A DNA stretch of 39,452 nucleotides, taken from the NCBI GenBank assembly GCA_030053925.1, contig JASGCX010000033.1:1-39452 (forward strand), in the 5' to 3' direction. Origin of the DNA: Flavobacterium sp. (GTDB lineage: Bacteria > Bacteroidota > Bacteroidia > Chitinophagales > Chitinophagaceae). Of the stretch, positions 3,193 through 39,162 are shown one piece after another; positions within the stretch are counted from its first letter, which is position 1; each line of letters begins with the position of its first letter. The notes below the pieces were generated by a model. The model was not told the DNA's origin and made no database searches. It was given only the letters and a program-made list of their open reading frames with translations. The translations under genes and the position numbers were made by a program.

Positions 3193-4209
3193 ATGAACTT
3201 AGAAAATAAAATACTTTTATATACCACACCGCAAGGCAATATCAACATAAGTGTACGATTTGAAAACGATACTTTTTGGCTAAACCAAAAGGCAATGGCA
3301 ACACTTTTTGGAGTAGAAGTACCAGCAATTAGTAAGCATTTAAAAAATATTTATACAGAAGGCGAATTATCAGAAAATGCGACTATTTCCAAAATGGAAA
3401 CAGTCGTAAATAGAGGTTTTAGAGGCGAGGTTTCAGAACCAATTGATTTTTACTCACTAGATGCTGTAATTGCCGTTGGATACCGAGTAAACAGCAAACA
3501 AGCCACTGCGTTTAGAATTTGGGCTACCAATACGCTTAAAGAATTTATTATTAAAGGTTTTGTGTTAGATGATGAACGATTAAAACAAGGCAAAACTTTT
3601 GGTAAAGATTATTTTGATGAATTACTGCACAGAATTAGAGAAATTAGGGCAAGTGAAAAACGCTTTTATCAAAAAATTAAAGACTTATTTGCATTAAGCA
3701 ACGATTACCAAACTACCATAAAAGAAACCAACACCTTTTTTGCTTTTGTACAAAACAAATTATTGTTTGCTGTTACTAAACAAACAGCAGCGGAATTAAT
3801 TATTAGCCGTGCCGATGCAAAAATGCTAAATATGGGTTTAACCACCTTTAAAGGCAGTAGAGTAAGAAAAGAAGATATTTTTATTGCCAAAAATTATTTA
3901 TAAGAAAAAGAAATAGATACTTTAAATAGATTGGTTTCGTTGTTTTTAGACACAGCAGAGTTGCGAATACAAAACGAAGAAATACTGACTTTGGATTATT
4001 GGAAAGCCGAAACCGATAATTTGTTAGCATTTAGTAAAAAGCCAATATTAGAAGGAGCAGGAAACATTAGCCACGACAAAATGGAAAAAACAGTTGGTAA
4101 AATATATGCCGATTTTGATGCAAACAGAAAAAAAATGGAAGCACTAGAAGAAGACGAAATAGAACAACAAGCCATTAAAAAATTAATGCAAAAAGCAACA
4201 AAAAAATAA
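3193..4209 (+). pseudogene. RhuM-family (virulence protein RhuM/Fic-like neighbourhood) gene split by an in-frame TAA at 3901-3903
   Basis: ORF 3193-3903 (TPQGNINISVRFENDTFWLNQKAMATLFGV...IFIAKNYL*) continues in the same frame as EKEIDTLNRLVSLFLDTAELRIQ...; 3193 and 3931 share the frame. Confidence 0.8.
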
Positions 4210-4496: not shown

Positions 4497-6185
4497 CTAT
4501 TTCCTCTTTATTTCAATTAGTTTGTCCAATAAAGTTTTAAAACCATTAAAATGATTGTCGTTAAATAATGGGTCTTGGCATTTTGTAGGTAAGTCAGCTT
4601 TTAATTTGTCTTTTACTTTGTTAGGGAACATTTTAAAAGTTTCGTCAGCACCTTTAATGATTTTAAGAGCTTCCTTAAAAATTAAATTCTTTTTAAAATA
4701 GTCTTCAACTACAAAGTTTGTGGTTTTCCAATTTTTTATTTTTGGGTACAATAGAAAATATATGTCTTTCTTTTTTTCAAAATCGAATGTCAGGTCTAAT
4801 GATTTACCTAATGCTTTTTCTATTGGGTTTTTCCCTTCACTATCTCTATCCAACAAAGCAATTATTTTTTGACCTGCTTTAGGTGTAAATTTATTCATAA
4901 AATTTTCTAACCCTTCAGCTCCGCCCATTGGAAAATATTCAAACTCCAAATTTTTATATTTATTGAATTTTGGTTTTAGCCTTTTTAATGCTTCAGAAAT
5001 GTAGATTTTGTCATATTTACCTTCAACAAGTAGAATGTCTTTATTTGAATTTAGAAAAATATTTTGGTCTTGATAAGTCCATACTCCTTTTGTCAATTCG
5101 TAAACAATTTCCTGTTTTGCCTTTGCTTCAATTTGTGCATCATTATTTGGCTTTTTGGTTAGCATTGTAATATGCTTTAAGTCAAAATTATGTGTCAATG
5201 TTGGCGAATGTGTGGTAATTATATTTTCTCGGTTGGTGTACTTTGAAAGAAGTTTTTGAATTTCTTCTTTTCTTGAAAGATGAATATGACTGTCAGGTTC
5301 GTCCAATAAAATCAAAGAATTTTCATCACCTACAACTTCTAGAATAAGCATTATTAAAAGCAATTTCTTTTCTCCTTCGCTTAAACATTCTGCATTAAGA
5401 TTTGTGTTGTAATTTATTTCAATTTTTGTAATGAGTTTATCGTTTTTGGGCATAAAGGATGCCGATAAGTAACGGAAAACTTCAATTTCTGAAAGATTAT
5501 TTAAAAGGTCTTTGAAAGTTGCTAAATCAATTTCAATTGTGGCTTCTTTTGCAGGATTTAATGACATTACAAAATTGGTGACTGGATTTGGGGATTTTAA
5601 AAAATCATTCAGTTTTGCAATGTCAAAAGTAAATTTAACTTTATTAAATGTTGTAATATTTAAAGTGTTTTGGCAAAAATCTCTAATGTCGGTAAAAACC
5701 GAAAAATCATAAAAATGAAGTGTAATTAAAGCAATGTCCCAATAGTATTTGTTGATGTAAATTAAATTAGAATTTGGAATAGTTGCTCCACGAATTGCCT
5801 TTATATATTCTTCATAAAAAGGCCAATAATATTTATCCCACAAACGTGTTTCTTCGCCACTATACGAACTTATCACTTGACTTGGCAAGTGTTCGGGTTT
5901 CAAATTATCTACTACATCGTTGATTTTGAAAATATACGTTCCGTTTTCATAATTAACTTCTACTTTGTAAGTGTCTTTGTTGTATTCAAGTTCGTAGTTA
6001 AATGCTGGATTGTATTTTCTGTCATAAAGACCTGCAAATATTCCGCTAATGGCTTCTAAAATGTTGCTTTTGCCACTTCCATTGTTTCCAATGAGTACCG
6101 TGATGCCTTCTTTGGTCGAAAAATCAATTTCAAAAGCTTCAAGGTTTTTAAACCGTGTGTTTATGTTTAATTTTTGTAATCTCAT
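4497..6185 (-). CDS. OLD-like AAA/ABC ATPase with C-terminal TOPRIM/DUF4435-like region, RM-linked
   Basis: Walker A GNNGSGKSN, signature LSEGEKKLLLIML, Walker B LILLDEPDSHIH, H-switch TTHSPTL; C-terminal ILLVEGKYDK ... IIALLDRDSEGK as in TOPRIM motifs. Confidence 0.85.
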   Translation of the reverse strand: MRLQKLNINTRFKNLEAFEIDFSTKEGITVLIGNNGSGKSNILEAISGIFAGLYDRKYNPAFNYELEYNKDTYKVEVNYENGTYIFKINDVVDNLKPEHLPSQVISSYSGEETRLWDKYYWPFYEEYIKAIRGATIPNSNLIYINKYYWDIALITLHFYDFSVFTDIRDFCQNTLNITTFNKVKFTFDIAKLNDFLKSPNPVTNFVMSLNPAKEATIEIDLATFKDLLNNLSEIEVFRYLSASFMPKNDKLITKIEINYNTNLNAECLSEGEKKLLLIMLILEVVGDENSLILLDEPDSHIHLSRKEEIQKLLSKYTNRENIITTHSPTLTHNFDLKHITMLTKKPNNDAQIEAKAKQEIVYELTKGVWTYQDQNIFLNSNKDILLVEGKYDKIYISEALKRLKPKFNKYKNLEFEYFPMGGAEGLENFMNKFTPKAGQKIIALLDRDSEGKNPIEKALGKSLDLTFDFEKKKDIYFLLYPKIKNWKTTNFVVEDYFKKNLIFKEALKIIKGADETFKMFPNKVKDKLKADLPTKCQDPLFNDNHFNGFKTLLDKLIEIKRK

Positions 6186-7540
6186 TAGCTAAAAATTGCT
6201 TTTTCAAATCCTTCTTCTGCTTCCAACAAGATTTTGGTCTTAAGCTCTTTATTTTTGACTATGCTGGATTTTATCAATTTTATTTTTTCAATAACTTCTT
6301 TTTGTAAATTGATTGGTGGTATTATTACAGGATAATCTTTAATCATTTGTGCATTAAGATTTGGTTGATTATTTCCACTTGCCATTTCTCGTAATCTATG
6401 ATATTCTCCAATTAAATAAGCCCAAAGAAAATCGGTTAAAATTATAGAATTATCAATATTGAATAAAACGGCACAAGCTTGATTTGTAGAAGCATCAATT
6501 CCTAATTTAGCCGTTCTTCCTCTTGTTAAACCTTGACCGTACATCGCAATTATTAAGCTATCTTTCGGATAAATTTTTGCACTACTATTTTTTATAGCTT
6601 CTTCTGTTATTTTTTCTTCGGTGTCATATATTATGTCATTAATAACTTCACCAGTTTTTATCCAAGGAATATTTCCATTATAATATTCGCTTCGTGCTCT
6701 ACTTGGCGTGCCACCGCTACTTACAGTGCATAATTCCTTGATTTTTCTGAACTCAAATGAACTGGTTACATTTAAATTGTTAGGTGTTTTATTCTGTTCA
6801 ACACCCCATTTATTCAATGTAGAATAATCTACTAATTGCAAGTATTCGCCAAGCTTATTCTTATTTTGAACCTTGTTTTCCTGATAACCTAAAATATCAA
6901 ACAAGTACTTTTCAATTTCTCCGCCTAAGTCAATTGATTGTTTAGATAAAAATTCAGCATCCTCTATCTTTTGATAGTATGTATTTACTAAAATTTCTTG
7001 CTCAATAAGTGAGGGTAATGGTATTTGTATATCAAGAAATTCGTCCTGTTTAACTCTTGCCTTTGAAATTCCTGTTGTTTTATTATTGAGTAGTTTTTTG
7101 AATGCACTGCTCCTTAGAATTTTATGAAGAAACTTACCACTAATTCTATTTTCATCAAACTTGAATGTAGGATATTCAGAACTGACACCAAATGGAACTA
7201 ACCCTTCTTCGTGAAAGTAAATACAACCGTGTCTTACATTTATCTTAGAATAAATTATTGCATTTTCGGGAACCAAATTAACATTGCCTTTATAGCTATG
7301 TATTTCTTCAAATGGCCTTAAAAAGAGCTCACCTGAAAAATTGATTTTAGAAATGATTTGCCATTTATTTTTAATCAACCCCTCTTTACTAATAGGTTTC
7401 CTATATGGTATTAAAATATCTCTAAGTGTTACAACTTTTTTAAATTTTAACTCGCTGGTTGTATAATAGCGTTTAACATCCCAAAGGTTTATATCAGAGA
7501 AAGGTATTAGCTTCAAATATGTATTTGTCAACTCTTGCAT
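6185..7540 (-). CDS. hsdS: Type I-style restriction specificity subunit S, two target recognition domains
   Basis: Two TRD halves; second has FRKIKELCTVSSGGTPSRARSEYYNGNIPWIKTGEV...; conserved IPLPSLIEQE and IPPINLQKEV helices; TAATG overlaps at both ends. Confidence 0.92.
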   Translation of the reverse strand: MQELTNTYLKLIPFSDINLWDVKRYYTTSELKFKKVVTLRDILIPYRKPISKEGLIKNKWQIISKINFSGELFLRPFEEIHSYKGNVNLVPENAIIYSKINVRHGCIYFHEEGLVPFGVSSEYPTFKFDENRISGKFLHKILRSSAFKKLLNNKTTGISKARVKQDEFLDIQIPLPSLIEQEILVNTYYQKIEDAEFLSKQSIDLGGEIEKYLFDILGYQENKVQNKNKLGEYLQLVDYSTLNKWGVEQNKTPNNLNVTSSFEFRKIKELCTVSSGGTPSRARSEYYNGNIPWIKTGEVINDIIYDTEEKITEEAIKNSSAKIYPKDSLIIAMYGQGLTRGRTAKLGIDASTNQACAVLFNIDNSIILTDFLWAYLIGEYHRLREMASGNNQPNLNAQMIKDYPVIIPPINLQKEVIEKIKLIKSSIVKNKELKTKILLEAEEGFEKAIFS

Positions 7541-9813
7541 TAATGGTTTGATTTGCTGTAAAACACTTCTGGCTCTGAAACGATATTATCGATTATTCTT
7601 ACTCTACCGATTTCATCATTTGCAATTTGGTAATTGATTTCCTTGATATAATTTGGCCACAGTTTATTTTCTTCACGATATTTTCTAAACTCTATTGCTA
7701 ATGGTTCTAGTTCATTCTCTATTTGTGCACCAGTTGTACTAATACCTGCTTTTTTCACTTCAGCAATTGGTATTTGATAATTAAACTCCCTTTTTATTTG
7801 TGCTTTAATTTCATAGAGTATATTTTCTTCAATTTGTTTTAATTCTGCTCTTAGTTTCTTTTTTTCTTCTGTGCTTGGGGCTTCCTTTCCTTTCAATTCA
7901 AGTTTTGCAAGAATTGGTTTTGTTTTTGGCTCATACTTTTTGGTAACATCTTTTTCTGCTTTAGTAGAAACTGATTTCCATTTTTTGACTTCTTCCTCTG
8001 TAAATTTTTTGAAAAATAGCAAACTTGGTTTCACAGTCGCACCACTTGCAATAAATACATCTTGCGGAATTGAAGTTATGAGTATAATTTTTGCCCTGCT
8101 TTCCACAAAATCTCTTATTTTTTGCAAATTGGTATTATTCAAAACGCCTTCGGGCAATACAATACCCATTCTACCGCCTGGCTTCAACAAGTTCAAACAG
8201 CGTTCTATAAACAGCACTTCGGTAAGCGAACTCATACTTCCGGTTTCGTATAAGTCCAACAGTGGTTTATCGATATTATCGTTTACTTGTTTTAGTGCTT
8301 CATCGTAATCACTTCCGTATCTTTTACGGTACTTTTTAATTCTTTCAATGTCTGTGTATTTGTCGGCTTCTGTAATTTTCAATGATTTCTCAACCCTGCT
8401 TCCAAACGGTGGATTGGTGAGGATAATATCAAAACGATTTTCAAAAATTCCATTTACATTTAAAAGTCCGTCATTGTGATGTACTCCACCGTGTCCGTCC
8501 CCGTGCATAATCATATTCATTTTTGCAGTTCGGCTCATTCTTGGATTAGCATCTGTTCCGAAAATGCAATCATAACTTAATTCCCTTATTCTGCTCTTTG
8601 AGTTGTTGATGTCTAGTTCTGCATTAAGTTTAGAAAACAAATCATTTACAGTTTCGTCAATTTCGGCTTTCTTTTTATCGCTTAGTTTTTCGTAGGCATC
8701 ATTATAATAGTCTTTTTTGATTTTTTCCTTTGCAAGATGGATTTCGTTTTCAATTTTTGCTCTTACATATTCAAAAGCCTTAATTAAAAATCCACCGCTA
8801 CCGCAACAAGGGTCGCAAATTATTTCGCTTTCTTGTGGGTCTAAGACATCTACAATAAAGTCTACTATTGTTCGAGGTGTAAAGAATTGTCCTAATTCTC
8901 CTCTAAATGTTTTACCAAGGAATTGCTCAAAGGCAATACCTTTTACATCGTCAGATGTTGTGGAAAGGTTGTAAATCTGCAATTCTTCAACGATTGCTTC
9001 AAAACTATTTTCTCTTACTCTGATAATTTCCGTTTGTTCAAAAAGGTCATCATCTTTGAAATCTTCTTTTGTTTGCTCAAACAAAAATTGATAGAAGTCT
9101 TTGCCGTCTTTTGGTTTGTATTTCTCGTAGCTAGCTTTATCATTCTTGAAAGCTTCCTTTGAGAAAATTTGGTTTTCTGAATTGCTTCTTTCGTAACGAA
9201 TTTTTATAAAAAGGATTTTGCTTATTTCGTCAAAAGCCGCTTCTGGTGAAAGTTTATCGTTGTTACGAATAATGTTGTGGCACTTAAAAAGTAGTTTTGA
9301 GAACTCATCTCTTGTGAAAGCTTTTGTTTGCTTTAATAACTCGTTTATTTTCTTTTCGTCAGTAACTGTTTTGGCATCAGGAATATTTACAACTTCTTCA
9401 AGTTTCTTTGGGATTTTACCTTTAACAACCTTGAAAATTCTTGTTTCTTTTAAGTTAGTTGTTACGAAAAAGTCAGCACCCGCCCAAGAAGCGTAATTAT
9501 AACCTTGAAAATAATCTTCTTCACGAACTGTAATGTGTTCGGCTTTACATTCTACAACTATTATTGGGCTATTGTTTTCTCTCTTGTCTTTTACATTTTT
9601 CCAAATTACAATGTCCGCCATTGCTCTGCCTTGTCCACGTTGCGAATTGCTCACTTGGATTTCTTGAGCCATTTGCTCTAAGTCAAAGCCGTAATTATTT
9701 ACAAGTCTGCAAATATATTCTTGACGAACTTGTTCTTCTGGTTTCAGTACTAACCATTCGTCATTTCCTTTTAGCGGTACTTTTATTTTATTGTTTTTGA
9801 TTTCTACTTGCAT
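7540..9813 (-). CDS. N6-adenine DNA methylase fused to an N-terminal HsdR_N-type PD-(D/E)xK-like nuclease domain
   Basis: N-terminus ADIVIWKN...PIIVVECKAE (D...ExK); methylase motifs DPCCGSGGFLIKAFEYV and ILTNPPFGSR; LLKPGGRMGIVLPEGVL. Confidence 0.9.
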   Translation of the reverse strand: MQVEIKNNKIKVPLKGNDEWLVLKPEEQVRQEYICRLVNNYGFDLEQMAQEIQVSNSQRGQGRAMADIVIWKNVKDKRENNSPIIVVECKAEHITVREEDYFQGYNYASWAGADFFVTTNLKETRIFKVVKGKIPKKLEEVVNIPDAKTVTDEKKINELLKQTKAFTRDEFSKLLFKCHNIIRNNDKLSPEAAFDEISKILFIKIRYERSNSENQIFSKEAFKNDKASYEKYKPKDGKDFYQFLFEQTKEDFKDDDLFEQTEIIRVRENSFEAIVEELQIYNLSTTSDDVKGIAFEQFLGKTFRGELGQFFTPRTIVDFIVDVLDPQESEIICDPCCGSGGFLIKAFEYVRAKIENEIHLAKEKIKKDYYNDAYEKLSDKKKAEIDETVNDLFSKLNAELDINNSKSRIRELSYDCIFGTDANPRMSRTAKMNMIMHGDGHGGVHHNDGLLNVNGIFENRFDIILTNPPFGSRVEKSLKITEADKYTDIERIKKYRKRYGSDYDEALKQVNDNIDKPLLDLYETGSMSSLTEVLFIERCLNLLKPGGRMGIVLPEGVLNNTNLQKIRDFVESRAKIILITSIPQDVFIASGATVKPSLLFFKKFTEEEVKKWKSVSTKAEKDVTKKYEPKTKPILAKLELKGKEAPSTEEKKKLRAELKQIEENILYEIKAQIKREFNYQIPIAEVKKAGISTTGAQIENELEPLAIEFRKYREENKLWPNYIKEINYQIANDEIGRVRIIDNIVSEPEVFYSKSNH

Positions 9814-28817: not shown

Positions 28818-29663
28818 CTATTTTTTTCCTTCAAAAAAGCCATAACCCTTTAAAATGCGTTTTAGCATATCAATACGTAAGTTGGCCATTGGTACATTTT
28901 TAGGGGCTTCTACATTTAATACAAAAAAGTAGGGGTGTCTATTTTCTTCTATCCAACCAACAACCCAACCTAGTTGGGTATTTTTTTCTGTGGTACCAAG
29001 CCCTGTTTTATAAGCCAAAGTATAGTTGGTATTATTTTCACGCACCATCATTTTTCTTACAATCTCTTGACTTCTACGTTGAAAACCTAATTGATAAAAG
29101 TACAGTTTCTTTACAATGCCTAGTTGTTCATCGGCAGTTATTTTTAAAGAATTATCTAACCAAAAAGTATCAATTGCTGTTTTAATTTTTGCAGTGCCAT
29201 AGTGCATGGTATCTAAGTATTCTTGCATGGTGTCTTTGCCTATTCTTTTGGCTAGTTCTTGGTAGTAAGGTACTGCCGAGTATTCAAAAGCCTCGGACAT
29301 GGTAAGGTCTTTGTTCCAGTTTTTGGCGGTATCGCCGTTGGCAAAAGTTCTAATTTTTCCATCCCATTTTATCACCATTTTTTCGTTTGCCACTTTACCG
29401 GTTTCTATACCTATTAGGCTGTTTACAATTTTAAAAGTAGATGCTGGTAAAAATCCCGTGTCTTTGTAACGATTAAGGTTGTAAATAGTAAATTGCCCTG
29501 TACCATTATCAAACATGGCAAAGCTGCCTATTACTTTATTGCTATCGAAAATGGGTTTTAAGTTGTTATCAATTGTAACATTATTAGGGCTACAAGCTGC
29601 TAATACGCTTATTAGTGTTATACTTGTAACTATTTTTAACAGTGTGAATGACGTGTATCTCAT
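28818..29663 (-). CDS. Class D (OXA-type) beta-lactamase, predicted lipoprotein
   Basis: Lipobox LAAC; S-x-x-K in LPASTFKIVNSLIGIE; S-x-V in EYSAVPYYQELAKRIG; KTG in LAYKTGLG; LGWVVGWIE. Confidence 0.92.
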   Translation of the reverse strand: MRYTSFTLLKIVTSITLISVLAACSPNNVTIDNNLKPIFDSNKVIGSFAMFDNGTGQFTIYNLNRYKDTGFLPASTFKIVNSLIGIETGKVANEKMVIKWDGKIRTFANGDTAKNWNKDLTMSEAFEYSAVPYYQELAKRIGKDTMQEYLDTMHYGTAKIKTAIDTFWLDNSLKITADEQLGIVKKLYFYQLGFQRRSQEIVRKMMVRENNTNYTLAYKTGLGTTEKNTQLGWVVGWIEENRHPYFFVLNVEAPKNVPMANLRIDMLKRILKGYGFFEGKK

Positions 29664-29714: not shown

Positions 29715-31064
29715 ATGTCAACAACAGATAAGCAAATACCAGCAATAACATCAACCAAGCTTTTTAAGTATGGCTTTGGTTTGGTAAACAATCCTTTAAA
29801 AGCCATTTCCGATATTGTAGATGCCTACGGCGATATTGCTTCGTTGAAGATTTCTAAAATTGGTTCTATTGTTTTCTTAAATCATCCAGATTATGTAAAG
29901 CATGTTTTAAAAGATAATCAAGATAATTATTCTCGGCGCAAAGCCGTTAAGCAACCATCTTTTAGTGCCCTGCAAGATTTGCTTGGTAATGGTATTTTTA
30001 TGAGCGATGGTGCGCAATGGGAACAACAACATACCATGTTGCGCAATTTATTTTCGCCCACATCTATTGCAAGCACTTTACCCATAATTGATGAAGAATT
30101 AACCCTACTAACCAAACGTTGGCAAACACAAATTACCAAGAAGCCAATTATTGATGTTGAGCAAGAACTGCATTTGCTGATGTTGCGCATCATGTTACGT
30201 ACACATGTTTGTAGCAATTTTCTTTTTCCGTTTAGCGATATTTTGGCAACGCTTAAAAACTTCATGAATGTGTCTAATTCAAAAAAAATATTTTTGGCAC
30301 AGTTAAAAGCCTTTGTACTAAAGCCTTTGGGCATAAAGTATCATTACAACAAGCCGCAGCAATCGCTTAAATGGTTAATGGCTTTTGTAGATGAATTGAT
30401 AGAAGCCTTGCTGCAACGTGCTTTTATACCAAATGGTTTGTTTGCTACAATGTTGGTTGATTATAATAATGGTAAGGTTTGTAAGCAAGATATTAAAGAC
30501 CAATTGCTCAATTTTTTATTTGCTGGTTTCGATACTACTTCTACAGGCATCACCTTTACGTTGTACAATTTAGCCGCACACCAGCCTATTCAACAATTGG
30601 TAAAAAATGAAATTGTAGATACCGCCACAAAACAATTTCCGGTACTTGAAAAGGCAATTAAAGAAACCTTACGATTGTATCCACCCGTGTGGTCGTATGC
30701 TAGAGAAGCCATTGCCAACGATGTAATAGATGGTTATTGCATACCAGCTAAAACCCTTGTGCTTATTAGTTCTTATGCCTTGCACAGGCATAAAAATTTT
30801 TGGCAAAATGCCAACGAATTTAACATCGATAATTTTGAGAAAGAAAATTTTAAAGGCAAAAATTTTGTGTACATACCTTTTGGGCAAGGCAAGCGAATGT
30901 GTATTGGTAGGGCTTTGGCCGATTATCAAATGATGACCATTGTACCACACTTGCTTAGGGTATTTCATTTTGCAACTGTAGATGATAAAAAGCCAATTAT
31001 TAATCCCAACATCATCATCAAAGCCACCAAATCAATTAAATTACGAGTAAGTTTGGCATCTTAA
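29715..31064 (+). CDS. Cytochrome P450 (A)
   Basis: I-helix AGFDTTSTG, ExxR KETLRLYPP, heme loop YIPFGQGKRMCIGRALA. Confidence 0.95.
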   Translation: MSTTDKQIPAITSTKLFKYGFGLVNNPLKAISDIVDAYGDIASLKISKIGSIVFLNHPDYVKHVLKDNQDNYSRRKAVKQPSFSALQDLLGNGIFMSDGAQWEQQHTMLRNLFSPTSIASTLPIIDEELTLLTKRWQTQITKKPIIDVEQELHLLMLRIMLRTHVCSNFLFPFSDILATLKNFMNVSNSKKIFLAQLKAFVLKPLGIKYHYNKPQQSLKWLMAFVDELIEALLQRAFIPNGLFATMLVDYNNGKVCKQDIKDQLLNFLFAGFDTTSTGITFTLYNLAAHQPIQQLVKNEIVDTATKQFPVLEKAIKETLRLYPPVWSYAREAIANDVIDGYCIPAKTLVLISSYALHRHKNFWQNANEFNIDNFEKENFKGKNFVYIPFGQGKRMCIGRALADYQMMTIVPHLLRVFHFATVDDKKPIINPNIIIKATKSIKLRVSLAS

Positions 31065-31089
31065 ATTTCATCTTCCGAATTGTATAACA

Positions 31090-31857
31090 ATGTCTAACAA
31101 AAAGTTTACTGTTAAACGCTTTCCTATTGATAAAAAAATTGTAGCAGATATTGCGGCATTTAATAAGTATGTCAATTTAATGCACGGGCTTTTTCAAATA
31201 GACATTGCCCACATTAGGCAGCAAATAAAAATTGCCAAGAAAGAACAGAACCTAAATGTTTCAATTTTAGCTTGTTTGCTGTACTGTTTTGCGCAAGCAT
31301 TAGATAAATACAAAGATGCTTTTGCTATGGTGGGCAAAGGCAGCAAATACTATCAGTTTGAAGAGGCAGATGTGTTTTTTCCTTTTGAATTACAGCAAAA
31401 TGGCGAGAAAATAATTTGGTACAAAATAATTAGGCGAGTTAATAAAAAAACCATTGTTGAACTAGAAGATGATTTAAAGAAAATGCTACAAATGCAGAAA
31501 ACCTTTACAAAAGCCGAGCGTTTTTTTATGCGTTTTCCTGGTTTTTTAAGACGCTTGTTTTATGGTAGAACCATGCGTAACCCTTTAATACGAAAGAGTT
31601 ATGTAGGCAACGTGTATTTTAGTTCTACTATTCATAGTGGCAATACACGTGTTATTTCGTATGGTTTACCTTCGCATTTTCATTCGGTTGGTATGTTTAT
31701 TGGTACGTTTATAGATGTTAAAAGTATGGAGCCACAAAAGCCCAATGCCAATATTGTAGGCGCTACATTATCGCTAGATCATTTAATAAGCGATGGATCA
31801 ATGCTTGCAAGATTAATTCGTGAGTTCGTTTTTCAAGTTGAAAACTTTAAACTTTAG
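31090..31857 (+). CDS. Stand-alone 2-oxoacid dehydrogenase E2/CAT-like acyltransferase
   Basis: C-terminal LSLDHLISDGSMLARLIREF resembles the DHxxxDG catalytic motif; no lipoyl domain. Confidence 0.7.
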   Translation: MSNKKFTVKRFPIDKKIVADIAAFNKYVNLMHGLFQIDIAHIRQQIKIAKKEQNLNVSILACLLYCFAQALDKYKDAFAMVGKGSKYYQFEEADVFFPFELQQNGEKIIWYKIIRRVNKKTIVELEDDLKKMLQMQKTFTKAERFFMRFPGFLRRLFYGRTMRNPLIRKSYVGNVYFSSTIHSGNTRVISYGLPSHFHSVGMFIGTFIDVKSMEPQKPNANIVGATLSLDHLISDGSMLARLIREFVFQVENFKL

Positions 31858-31859
31858 TA

Positions 31860-33218
31860 ATGGTACATCCGCCTAAAAATATTCCTTGGTATAAAATTCC
31901 CTACCATTCTTTTAGTATCCTTAAAAATCCGTTGAAAGCCATTTATCAAATGGTAGAAAGCTACGGCGATATTTTTGCTTTTAAGATTGGCAACATGCGC
32001 AGCATCATCTTTTTAAACCATCCCGATTATGTTAAGCATGTGCTTAAAGATAACGTAGATAACTATTCTAGAGGAAGCGCCTTAAAAATGTCTACTACGG
32101 GTTTAGAAGAAATGCTTGGCAATGGTATTTTTATAAGCGAAGGCGACGATTGGGAATTTCAACATAAGCTATTAAAGCGTTTGTTTTCGCCTGCTGCAAT
32201 AGAAAGTACCTTACCTGTTTTGCAAGAAGAAATTGATAAGTTTATACAAAAATGGGCTAATGCAGTGGTTAATAATCCTGTTGTGAATATTGAATACGAT
32301 ATTCATTTACTGATGTTGCAAATTATGCTACGCAGCCATGTTTGTAAAAATTATCCATTCAATTACAAAGAAATTTTTGACACCTATAATGCACGTATTG
32401 AAGCTTCAAGTTGGAACGTTGGTGCGGTTTCGGAAGCCAAATCTTTTTTTTTAAAACCACTTGGTATTAATTATGCTTACAATAAGCACCAGCATCACAT
32501 AAATAAGCTAAACGCATTTTCTAATAAACTTGTACAAGCGTTACTTAATGGCGAGTTTGAACCCGTTGGTTTATTTGCTCTTATGCTTGGCGAGTTTAAA
32601 GAGGGGCGTGTTACACAAAAAGACATCCGTGACCAACTCTTCAATTTTTTGCTTGCAGGCTTTGAAACCACCGCTACTGCTATTTCTTGGCTATTGTACA
32701 ATATTGCTGCGCAGCCAAATTTGCAAGCACTTTTAAAAGATGAATTAAAGGTTACAGCCACAGCAAATGACGATGTTTTAAAGCAAGCATCTTTATTGCA
32801 ATTGGCAATTAAAGAGTCGCTACGGTTATATGCACCTGTTTGGTCTACCGCCCGTGTTGCAGTTAGAGACGATATTGTTGGAGGTAAGTTTATAAAAGCT
32901 AAAAGTATTGTGGTTATTAACTCTTACGCATTACATAGGCACAAAGCGTTTTGGCCATCGGGCAATAAATTTAACATTGCCAACTTTGAGAAAGATAATT
33001 TTAAAGGTAAAACATTTGCCTATATACCTTACAGCCAAGGAAAGCGAATTTGTCTTGGTATGGCTTTAGCCGATTATCAAATTCAAACTATAACAAGTGC
33101 TTTGTTAAAGGCTTTCAATTTTGAAACTACCTCTAACAAAGCACCAGAAATTAAAGCAAACATTATTATTAAGGCTAGCCCATCTTTACAATTAAAAATT
33201 AGTAAGGCGGGTGCTTAA
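31860..33218 (+). CDS. Cytochrome P450 (B), paralogue of A
   Basis: AGFETTATA, KESLRLYAP, YIPYSQGKRICLGMALA; shares LNHPDYVKHVLKDN.DNYSR with P450 A. Confidence 0.94.
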   Translation: MVHPPKNIPWYKIPYHSFSILKNPLKAIYQMVESYGDIFAFKIGNMRSIIFLNHPDYVKHVLKDNVDNYSRGSALKMSTTGLEEMLGNGIFISEGDDWEFQHKLLKRLFSPAAIESTLPVLQEEIDKFIQKWANAVVNNPVVNIEYDIHLLMLQIMLRSHVCKNYPFNYKEIFDTYNARIEASSWNVGAVSEAKSFFLKPLGINYAYNKHQHHINKLNAFSNKLVQALLNGEFEPVGLFALMLGEFKEGRVTQKDIRDQLFNFLLAGFETTATAISWLLYNIAAQPNLQALLKDELKVTATANDDVLKQASLLQLAIKESLRLYAPVWSTARVAVRDDIVGGKFIKAKSIVVINSYALHRHKAFWPSGNKFNIANFEKDNFKGKTFAYIPYSQGKRICLGMALADYQIQTITSALLKAFNFETTSNKAPEIKANIIIKASPSLQLKISKAGA

Positions 33219-35696: not shown

Positions 35697-36128
35697 ATGC
35701 AACTAGTATCGTTTAACACGGCAGATAAACCGCTAACACTTAAAAACAAGACACGCTTAAAACAATTTATTGCCGGCATTTTTAACCACGAAAATAAGTT
35801 GCTAAAGAAAATTGATTATGTTTTTTGCTCCGATGATTATTTGTTGCAACTGAATAACAAGTTCTTGCAGCACGATTATTATACAGACATTATCACATTT
35901 CCCTTATCTGACAAGCACCAGCCCATTGTTGGCGAGGTTTATATAAGTTTAGATAGAGTTAAAGACAACGCATCGCAACACAACACCACCTTGCTTGACG
36001 AGACATTAAGGGTGCTTTTTCACGGCGCACTACACCTTTGCGGCTATGGCGACAAGTCGGCAAAAGACATTAAAACCATGCGGGCAAAAGAAGATTTTTA
36101 TATCAAGTTGTTTCACGTGGAACATTAA
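35697..36128 (+). CDS. ybeY: Endoribonuclease YbeY
   Basis: DIITFPL, VGEVYISLDRV, HGALHLCGYGDK. Confidence 0.93.
   Translation: MQLVSFNTADKPLTLKNKTRLKQFIAGIFNHENKLLKKIDYVFCSDDYLLQLNNKFLQHDYYTDIITFPLSDKHQPIVGEVYISLDRVKDNASQHNTTLLDETLRVLFHGALHLCGYGDKSAKDIKTMRAKEDFYIKLFHVEH
36109..36124. promoter_or_regulatory. parS-like ParB binding site 1 (overlaps ybeY 3' end)
   Basis: TGTTTCACGTGGAACA, exact reverse complement of the canonical TGTTCCACGTGAAACA. Confidence 0.88.
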
Positions 36129-36173
36129 TAACCAACAGCCTCCGCTCTCAATCTTGCCCATTCCACTGTTTTA

Positions 36174-36189
36174 TGTTTCACGTGGAACA
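36174..36189. promoter_or_regulatory. parS-like ParB binding site 2
   Basis: TGTTTCACGTGGAACA, second exact copy 65 bp from the first. Confidence 0.88.
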
Positions 36190-36258
36190 TTGGTTTTTTT
36201 AGAAGTTTCACATGTCGTCAAAGGCTTGTTTTATCTTTGTTCTTCAATTGAAATAACA

Positions 36259-38127
36259 ATGTTTCCAGATTATGATGTTATAGTGGTGGGTGCAGGTCAC
36301 GCAGGTTGCGAGGCTGCTGCTGCCGCCGCTAACCTTGGCAGCAAGGTGTTGTTGATTACTATGAATATGCAAACCATTGCCCAAATGAGTTGCAACCCAG
36401 CAATGGGTGGTATAGCCAAGGGGCAAATAGTAAGAGAGATAGATGCCATGGGTGGCTACAGCGGTATTGTGTCAGACAAGAGTATGATACAGTTTCGCAT
36501 GTTAAACGTAAGTAAAGGTCCTGCCATGTGGAGCCCTCGGGTACAAAGCGATAGAATGATGTTTGCTGCAACTTGGCGTGAAATGCTTGAGCAAACACCT
36601 AATGTTGATTTTTACCAAGACATGGTAAGCTCGCTAATTATTAATAACAACAAAGCCTGTGGCGTAGTTACAGGTATGGGCAACAAAATAAAAGCCAAAG
36701 CGGTAGTGGTAACTAGCGGCACGTTTTTAAATGGCGTTATCCATATTGGCGAAAAACAGTTTGGTGGCGGTCGTGTAGGCGAGAAGGCGGCAACAGGTAT
36801 TACCGAACAATTGGTGGCTTTTGGCTTTGAAAGCGATCGTTTAAAAACAGGTACCCCACCTCGTATTGATGGTAGAAGTTTGGATTATTCTAAAATGGAA
36901 GAACAAAAAGGCGACGATGTAATTACCGGCTTCTCGTATTTAGACATTGAAAAGATAAAACCAGCGCAGCAAAGAAGCTGTCATGTTACTTACACCAATC
37001 AAATAGTACACGATATTCTTAAAACGGGTTTCGATAGAAGCCCAATGTACCAAGGTAGAATTGAAGGTAGGGGCCCAAGATATTGCCCAAGTATTGAGGA
37101 TAAGATTAACCGTTTTGCTGAAAGAGACAGACATCAACTATTTGTAGAGCCCGAAGGATGGAATACCTGTGAGATATATGTGAACGGATTTTCTACCTCT
37201 TTACCCGAAGACGTACAAATAAAAGCCTTACGCACTGTGCCAGGTTTTGAAAACTGTAGACTATTTAGACCAGGTTATGCTATTGAGTACGACTATTTTC
37301 CACCTACACAATTAAAGTATTCGCTTGAAACCAAATTAATGGACAACCTGTTTTTTGCAGGTCAAATTAATGGCACAACAGGATATGAAGAAGCCGCTTG
37401 CCAAGGTTTGATGGCAGGTATTAATGCGCACCAAAAAGCAAAAGAACTTGAAGCCGTTGTACTTAAAAGGAGCGAGGCTTACATAGGTGTATTGATAGAT
37501 GACCTAATAAGTAAAGGCACAGACGAACCTTACAGAATGTTTACAAGCCGTGCCGAGTACAGAACATTGTTGCGTCAAGATAATGCAGATTTGCGCTTAA
37601 CCGAAATGAGTTACAACCTTGGTTTAGCATCAAAAGAGCGATTAGACAAAGTGCATAAAAAGCTAGATAGTGTAAAGCAAATCACGGCTGTTTTAAAAAA
37701 CTTTAATGTAGAAGCCAACGATATTAACCCATACTTTCAAACCATTCTATCAACGCCAATAACCGAAAAACAAAGGGCTAATAAAATTATCCTACGACCA
37801 AATGTGGGCTTAAAAGAAATGATGACGGCAATACCGGCACTAGCAACACACCTAAATGGCTTTGATGAAAAAGAGTTAGAACAGGCAGAAATTCAAGTTA
37901 AATACGAGCGCTATATAGAGAAAGAACAAGAACTTGTAAATAAAATGGGGCAGCTAGAAAACATGATTATTCCAGATTCTTTCAACTACGATAAGGTGAA
38001 TGCGTTGTCTAACGAAGCATTGCAAAAGTTCAAAAAAATTCGCCCTCACACACTTGGTCAAGCAAGCCGTATAAGCGGTGTAAACCCAAGTGATGTACAA
38101 ATATTAATGGTGTACATGGGCAGATAG
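36259..38127 (+). CDS. mnmG: tRNA uridine-5-carboxymethylaminomethyl modification enzyme MnmG (GidA)
   Basis: YDVIVVGAGHAGCEAAAAAANLG, CNPAMGGIAKGQIVREIDAMGG, FTSRAEYRTLLRQDNADLRLT; ATG at 36259 chosen. Confidence 0.97.
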   Translation: MFPDYDVIVVGAGHAGCEAAAAAANLGSKVLLITMNMQTIAQMSCNPAMGGIAKGQIVREIDAMGGYSGIVSDKSMIQFRMLNVSKGPAMWSPRVQSDRMMFAATWREMLEQTPNVDFYQDMVSSLIINNNKACGVVTGMGNKIKAKAVVVTSGTFLNGVIHIGEKQFGGGRVGEKAATGITEQLVAFGFESDRLKTGTPPRIDGRSLDYSKMEEQKGDDVITGFSYLDIEKIKPAQQRSCHVTYTNQIVHDILKTGFDRSPMYQGRIEGRGPRYCPSIEDKINRFAERDRHQLFVEPEGWNTCEIYVNGFSTSLPEDVQIKALRTVPGFENCRLFRPGYAIEYDYFPPTQLKYSLETKLMDNLFFAGQINGTTGYEEAACQGLMAGINAHQKAKELEAVVLKRSEAYIGVLIDDLISKGTDEPYRMFTSRAEYRTLLRQDNADLRLTEMSYNLGLASKERLDKVHKKLDSVKQITAVLKNFNVEANDINPYFQTILSTPITEKQRANKIILRPNVGLKEMMTAIPALATHLNGFDEKELEQAEIQVKYERYIEKEQELVNKMGQLENMIIPDSFNYDKVNALSNEALQKFKKIRPHTLGQASRISGVNPSDVQILMVYMGR

Positions 38128-38678: not shown

Positions 38679-38697
38679 AATTGTAATTTTGTCCATT

Positions 38698-39162
38698 ATG
38701 TTATTCTTTTTAGATATAGATGGTGTTATGGTGCCTGCCAAAGGTTGGAAAAGTCCTGAGTTTTTGAATGATGGATTTCCGGCTTTTAGTAGTAAAGCAA
38801 CTATTACACTTCAAAATTCGATTTCGGAAGAAGACACTATTATGCTTACAACGTCTCATAAGGCAAAGTTTAGCATTGAAGCGTGGAAAAATATTTTCAA
38901 GAATAGAGGGATTAACATTGAAAAGATAAAATCACTTCCTGAAAACATCAATAACCTTAGTAGGAAAGATGAAATTGTCAATTGGTTTAATGTCAATAAT
39001 GTCGATGAAAATTTTGTTATTATTGACGATGATAAGTCTTTAAATGAACTTCCTAATTTTTTAAAAGCGAATTTGGTACAAACAAGCCCTTATATTGGTC
39101 TTACAGAAGAAAATTTAGCTGCTATAAAATCTATCACACTTAAAGGTTTACAACCTGCATAA
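38698..39162 (+). CDS. HAD-like protein of the SAK (Swiss Army Knife RNA repair) HAD type
   Basis: N-terminal LFFLDIDGVMVP; LTTSHK; VIIDDDKSL acidic motif. Confidence 0.7.
   Translation: MLFFLDIDGVMVPAKGWKSPEFLNDGFPAFSSKATITLQNSISEEDTIMLTTSHKAKFSIEAWKNIFKNRGINIEKIKSLPENINNLSRKDEIVNWFNVNNVDENFVIIDDDKSLNELPNFLKANLVQTSPYIGLTEENLAAIKSITLKGLQPA

What the first reader, a model, noticed from the sequence alone, without database searches (positions are those of the whole stretch)
36109..36189. Two exact parS-consensus palindromes at the ybeY/mnmG junction
Both sites read TGTTTCACGTGGAACA, the reverse complement of the canonical ParB site TGTTCCACGTGAAACA, 65 bp apart. The first encodes the last YbeY residues (FHVEH). 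A degenerate half-site (gtttcacatg) follows near 36205. Established: chromosomal parS sites cluster near the replication origin and gidA/mnmG is a classical origin-proximal neighbour.
Basis: partly seen in the sequence, partly recalled or inferred. Interest (0 to 1): 0.7.

Follow-up and report, generated by a model that had tools for sequence, protein, structure and literature searches.

The report
Chromosomal centromere sites beside mnmG
Two copies of the standard bacterial centromere sequence (parS), which the cell's ParB protein should bind to pull new chromosome copies apart, sit between the ybeY and mnmG genes; relatives across the Bacteroidota keep it at the same place, and in the four complete relatives examined it lies at the compositional mark of the replication origin, so the find is real but of a well-known kind.

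Summary
Two exact copies of TGTTTCACGTGGAACA lie at 36109-36124 and 36174-36189. They are the only matches with 0 or 1 mismatch in the 3.9 Mb genome, where about 0.003 would be expected by composition. The genome encodes ParA, a full three-domain ParB with the parS-specific residues, SMC and ScpB. The core 14-mer recurs in 12 of 13 congeners. In the family, 73 of 150 genomes have the strict 16-mer (reversed-pattern control 1 of 150), and 22 of 27 lacking it have a near-match beside mnmG. Across the phylum, 223 of 299 genomes have it. Of 80 named mnmG loci, 62 carry the core within 10 kb (control 1). In four complete relatives parS lies 10-18 kb from a local GC-skew minimum, whereas dnaA is 0.75-1.94 Mb away and parB 1.3-1.8 Mb away. 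These are therefore chromosomal parS sites at the replication origin, held at the ybeY-mnmG junction across much of the Bacteroidota. The sites have also entered coding sequence: the ybeY 3' end (FHVEH/FHVEQ or VSRGT) and a fixed codon of mnmG. The third 'half-site' is not supported. ParB binding was not tested. New member of a known kind.

The parts
36109..36124 (+). parS site 1, TGTTTCACGTGGAACA; doubles as the last codons of ybeY (LFHVEH)
   Evidence: Exact; one of two in the genome; same place and frame in sister L250 and in many relatives
36174..36189 (+). parS site 2, TGTTTCACGTGGAACA, intergenic, 69 bp before the mnmG start codon
   Evidence: Exact; conserved in congeners while the DNA between the two sites diverges
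35697..36128 (+). ybeY, rRNA maturation RNase; 3' end overlaps parS site 1
   Evidence: TIGR00043, 84.9 bits, cut-off 45
36259..38127 (+). mnmG (gidA), tRNA uridine-5-carboxymethylaminomethyl synthesis enzyme; start codon ATG at 36259
   Evidence: TIGR00136, 850.8 bits; start read from the sequence
36232..36239 (+). TATCTTTG, matches the Bacteroidota -7 element TAnnTTTG; probable mnmG promoter between parS site 2 and mnmG
   Evidence: conserved as TAnnTTTG in the ten congeners aligned; consensus recalled from the literature, not tested
36205..36214 (+). 'Degenerate half-site' GTTTCACATG; judged not to be a parS site
   Evidence: 5 mismatches over 14 bp; not conserved beyond the sister species

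Best explanation
The two sites are chromosomal parS sites, the centromere of this Chitinophagaceae chromosome. By established ParABS biology, ParB dimers load at parS, clamp and slide outward in a CTP-dependent way, recruit SMC-ScpAB, and are moved by ParA so that sister origin regions separate. Shown here: exact sites, uniqueness in the genome, presence of parA, parB, smc and scpB, conservation of the site and its place, and coincidence with the skew-defined origin in relatives. Inferred: ParB binding, segregation function, and origin proximity in this particular genome, which is a 134-contig draft.
For: Only two 0-1 mismatch sites in 3.9 Mb. One parA-parB locus; ParB has the ParB_N, HTH_ParB and ParB_C domains. 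Aligned to the numbering in PMC7383237, it carries R173, N178, G201 and R204, i.e. the RXXG class described there as parS-specific. SMC at 997.7 bits and ScpB at 115.5 bits are in the same genome. Core 14-mer in 12 of 13 congeners. Family 73 of 150 with control 1 of 150; 22 of 27 genomes lacking the strict 16-mer have a <=2-mismatch site at mnmG, against 0.2 of 27 in shuffles. Phylum 223 of 299 with control 1; 62 of 80 named mnmG loci with control 1. Skew sign change at parS in complete relatives. The densest DnaA-box cluster in 200 kb around parS lies 3.9-7.3 kb from it in four genomes, and about 3.6-4.5 kb from the mnmG start in many Cytophagales.
Against: No binding data. The contig ends 3.3 kb past parS, so the origin itself is not seen here; TTATCCACA is rare in this genome (25, against 70 for the reversed control) and shows no cluster. 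In G119 the coarse skew fit misses parS by 140-320 kb. In some order- and class-mates (f2, f9) parS is not at mnmG.
Confidence: 0.95

Rival explanations
1. The palindromes are operators of a transcription factor that controls mnmG or ybeY; ParB is not involved.
For: Site 2 lies about 43 bp upstream of a conserved TAnnTTTG element, with near-constant spacing in congeners.
Against: In Flavobacteriaceae and Chryseobacterium a site also lies just beyond the 3' end of mnmG, and 16 loci have one or more inside mnmG. Copy number ranges from 1 to 13 and spacing differs widely. The sequence is the known ParB target, and the genome has a ParB of the matching specificity class.
Confidence: 0.03
2. The inverted repeats act as RNA hairpins, such as a ybeY terminator.
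For: Near-palindromic, and site 1 spans the end of ybeY.
Against: The terminator scan found nothing at either site. Sites inside mnmG and in differing frames of ybeY do not fit. Strict conservation of CACGTG suits a DNA-protein site.
Confidence: 0.01
3. Chance, or a local repeat copied in assembly.
For: Two identical 16-mers 65 bp apart.
Against: Expected 0.003 per genome. The same pair occurs in the sister L250 and, with substitutions, in other congeners, while the sequence between them diverges.
Confidence: 0.01

Closest known systems
Chromosomal ParABS parS sites (consensus TGTTNCACGTGAAACA, Bacillus subtilis / Pseudomonas / Caulobacter type)
   Same: Same 14-16 bp sequence, few copies clustered within kilobases, near the skew-defined origin, with a ParB of the RXXG parS-specific class in the genome
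   Different: parAB and dnaA lie far from parS in the four complete relatives (parB 1.3-1.8 Mb, dnaA 0.75-1.94 Mb)
Origin predictions at mnmG in Flavobacteriaceae (PMC11278836, PMC12843772)
   Same: The origin is placed next to mnmG by Ori-Finder and GC skew, and in PMC11278836 dnaA did not fit the skew plot
   Different: The passages read there do not mention parS sites; here parS is shown at the same junction in Chitinophagaceae and other families
Intragenic parS sites of Pseudomonas aeruginosa (PMC4368675)
   Same: Nine of ten parS sites there are predicted to lie within coding sequences
   Different: Here the same gene ends (ybeY 3' end, a fixed mnmG codon) host parS repeatedly across families

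Membership tests
Chromosomal parS site | Match to the 14-16 bp ParB-site consensus | tested here: met
   Two exact copies
Chromosomal parS site | Few copies, clustered, not scattered | tested here: met
   Two in 3.9 Mb, 65 bp apart
Chromosomal parS site | A cognate ParB with parS-type specificity residues, and ParA, in the genome | tested here: met
   L022 parA-parB; ParB_N/HTH_ParB/ParB_C; R173 and G201 equivalents
Chromosomal parS site | Located near the replication origin | tested here: inconclusive
   Met in complete relatives; cannot be shown in this draft genome
Chromosomal parS site | Conserved across relatives at an equivalent place | tested here: met
Chromosomal parS site | ParB binds the site in vivo and it supports segregation | not testable with these tools
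   Needs ChIP-seq and mutants

The most novel reading that the evidence does not exclude
The ybeY-mnmG junction is an old, lineage-wide fixed address for the centromere and origin in Bacteroidota. It has stayed with the origin while dnaA and parAB moved away, and ParB-site selection has repeatedly rewritten the end of ybeY in different reading frames, as well as a fixed internal codon of mnmG.
Probability: 0.6. Interest if true: 0.5.

Novelty: new member of a known kind. Interest (0 to 1): 0.33.

Why it matters
It gives a simple sequence landmark (ybeY-parS-mnmG) for the replication origin in draft Bacteroidota genomes, where dnaA misleads. That helps replication-rate estimates and the orientation of assemblies, and it names an exact site for ParB experiments in a phylum where few have been done, as far as I could find.

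Tried and rejected
The 2007 parS survey by Livny et al. is not held, so whether it already lists mnmG-linked parS in Bacteroidetes could not be checked. The operator, terminator and chance readings were rejected as described under the rivals. The third half-site was rejected. Literature searches for ParB-parS work in Bacteroidota found no direct study. A search for exact DnaA boxes in the window's own genome gave no cluster.

Full report
Observation. Two exact copies of TGTTTCACGTGGAACA lie at 36109-36124 and 36174-36189. The start-to-start distance is 65 bp and the gap 49 bp. By composition, 3e-5 matches to the degenerate 16-mer are expected in the window and 0.003 in the genome. The window is an entire contig (C92) of a 3.9 Mb, 134-contig assembly. 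In that genome these are the only sites with 0 or 1 mismatch; the next best has 2. The neighbouring genes are ybeY (TIGR00043) and mnmG (TIGR00136); mnmG starts at ATG 36259.

The protein side. The genome has one ParB above cut-off, directly after parA (L022), with ParB_N, HTH_ParB and ParB_C domains. The HTH segment GKERSTVTNYIRLLK...SLSMGHARAL aligns without gaps to ParB proteins of known structure. Counted by the numbering of PMC7383237, it has R173, N178, G201 and R204, the RXXG class that paper describes as parS-specific and distinct from Noc. The counting is mine. SMC (997.7 bits) and ScpB (115.5 bits) are also encoded. ScpA was not searched.

Conservation. In the genus, 12 of 13 genomes carry the core GTTYCACGTGRAAC within one mismatch, mostly as close pairs. 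In an alignment of congeners both sites stand out while the sequence between them diverges. In the family, 73 of 150 genomes have the strict 16-mer, with the reversed-pattern control in 1 of 150. Of the 35 family loci examined (30, 5 more), all but one show mnmG within the 3 kb stretch; the exception (L033) shows ybeY. Thirty family genomes without the strict 16-mer were searched for mnmG; 22 of the 27 usable loci have a site with at most 2 mismatches there, against 0.2 of 27 in shuffles. In the phylum 223 of 299 genomes match, control 1. In 80 named mnmG loci, from Chitinophaga, Pedobacter, Flavobacterium, Chryseobacterium, Roseivirga and others, 62 have the core within about 10 kb of mnmG, control 1. 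Members of two other families of the same order or class (f2, f9) have sites that are not at mnmG. Saprospiraceae loci show none at mnmG. That the window's family is Chitinophagaceae is inferred from its nearest named mnmG relatives.

Position on the chromosome. In four complete relatives GC skew was sampled in twenty 20 kb stretches each. The best-fit origin interval contains parS in G117, G109 and G019; in G119, which is noisy, it misses by 140-320 kb. In contiguous 200 kb around parS, the cumulative skew minimum lies 10-18 kb from parS in all four. dnaA is 0.75-1.94 Mb and parB 1.3-1.8 Mb from parS. The densest DnaA-box cluster in that 200 kb lies 3.9-7.3 kb from parS, best in G019 with 12 boxes, 5 exact, in 600 bp. 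In many Cytophagales a similar cluster lies about 3.6-4.5 kb from the mnmG start, intergenic in L293. Many other loci, Flavobacterium among them, show no such cluster. In this window the contig ends 3.3 kb past parS, so the equivalent place is not covered, and no TTATCCACA cluster was found elsewhere in the draft. Origin proximity in this genome is therefore inferred.

Sites inside genes. Among 169 loci with mnmG or ybeY, sites fall mostly in or upstream of the ybeY-mnmG gap (283 sites), but 41 lie in or over the ybeY 3' end and 18 inside mnmG. The loci overlap in part between searches, so these are counts of loci, not of independent events. In ybeY two frames dominate, giving FHVE(Q/H/L) or V(S/P)R(G/E)T endings. 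In mnmG the site is at the same codon (about 128) in 16 loci, read VSR(G/E)T or VPRGT. Use of different frames at the ybeY end points to selection on the DNA, not the peptide. Intragenic parS is known from Pseudomonas aeruginosa (PMC4368675).

Rivals. An mnmG operator is the only one with some support: site 2 stands at near-constant spacing from a conserved TAnnTTTG element in congeners. It does not explain sites beyond or inside mnmG. A terminator is not supported. The third half-site is shared only with the sister species and is not counted as parS.

Literature. Origin predictions at mnmG exist for two Flavobacteriaceae (PMC11278836, PMC12843772). A study of intestinal bacteria including Bacteroidetes used parS clusters and skew to place origins and noted that dnaA is unreliable (PMC10197239). 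The kind is known. What this adds is the breadth of the ybeY-parS-mnmG association, and I could not exclude that the 2007 parS survey already reports part of it.

Noticed in passing
window 4497-9813, strand -: A type I-like restriction gene set: a methylase with an HSDR_N nuclease-like N-terminus fused to N6_Mtase, a specificity subunit, and an AAA ATPase with an OLD-like TOPRIM hit (PtuA/GajA-like); no helicase subunit was seen among the listed ORFs.
   Followed up: partly
window 3193-3903, strand +: RhuM-family protein, matching PADLOC candidate PDC-S05 strongly.
   Followed up: no
window 28818-29663, strand -: Penicillin-binding transpeptidase-domain protein that looks like a class D beta-lactamase by eye; only the Pfam Transpeptidase domain was tested.
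   Followed up: no
window 29715-33218, strand +: Two similar cytochrome P450-like genes flank a protein with a weak acyltransferase-fold hit, an apparent small cluster; only the first P450 was scanned.
   Followed up: no
L206 and L207: In family f9, where parS is not at mnmG, the site lies near a DciA gene, and in L207 also near a gene that looks RecF-like by eye.
   Followed up: partly
L313: A Flavobacterium locus carries 13 parS-like sites within about 3 kb around mnmG, many at 40-120 bp spacing.
   Followed up: no
window 38689-39162, strand +: HAD domain of the Swiss Army Knife RNA repair type (PF18143) downstream of mnmG, preceded by an ORF without a Pfam match.
   Followed up: no
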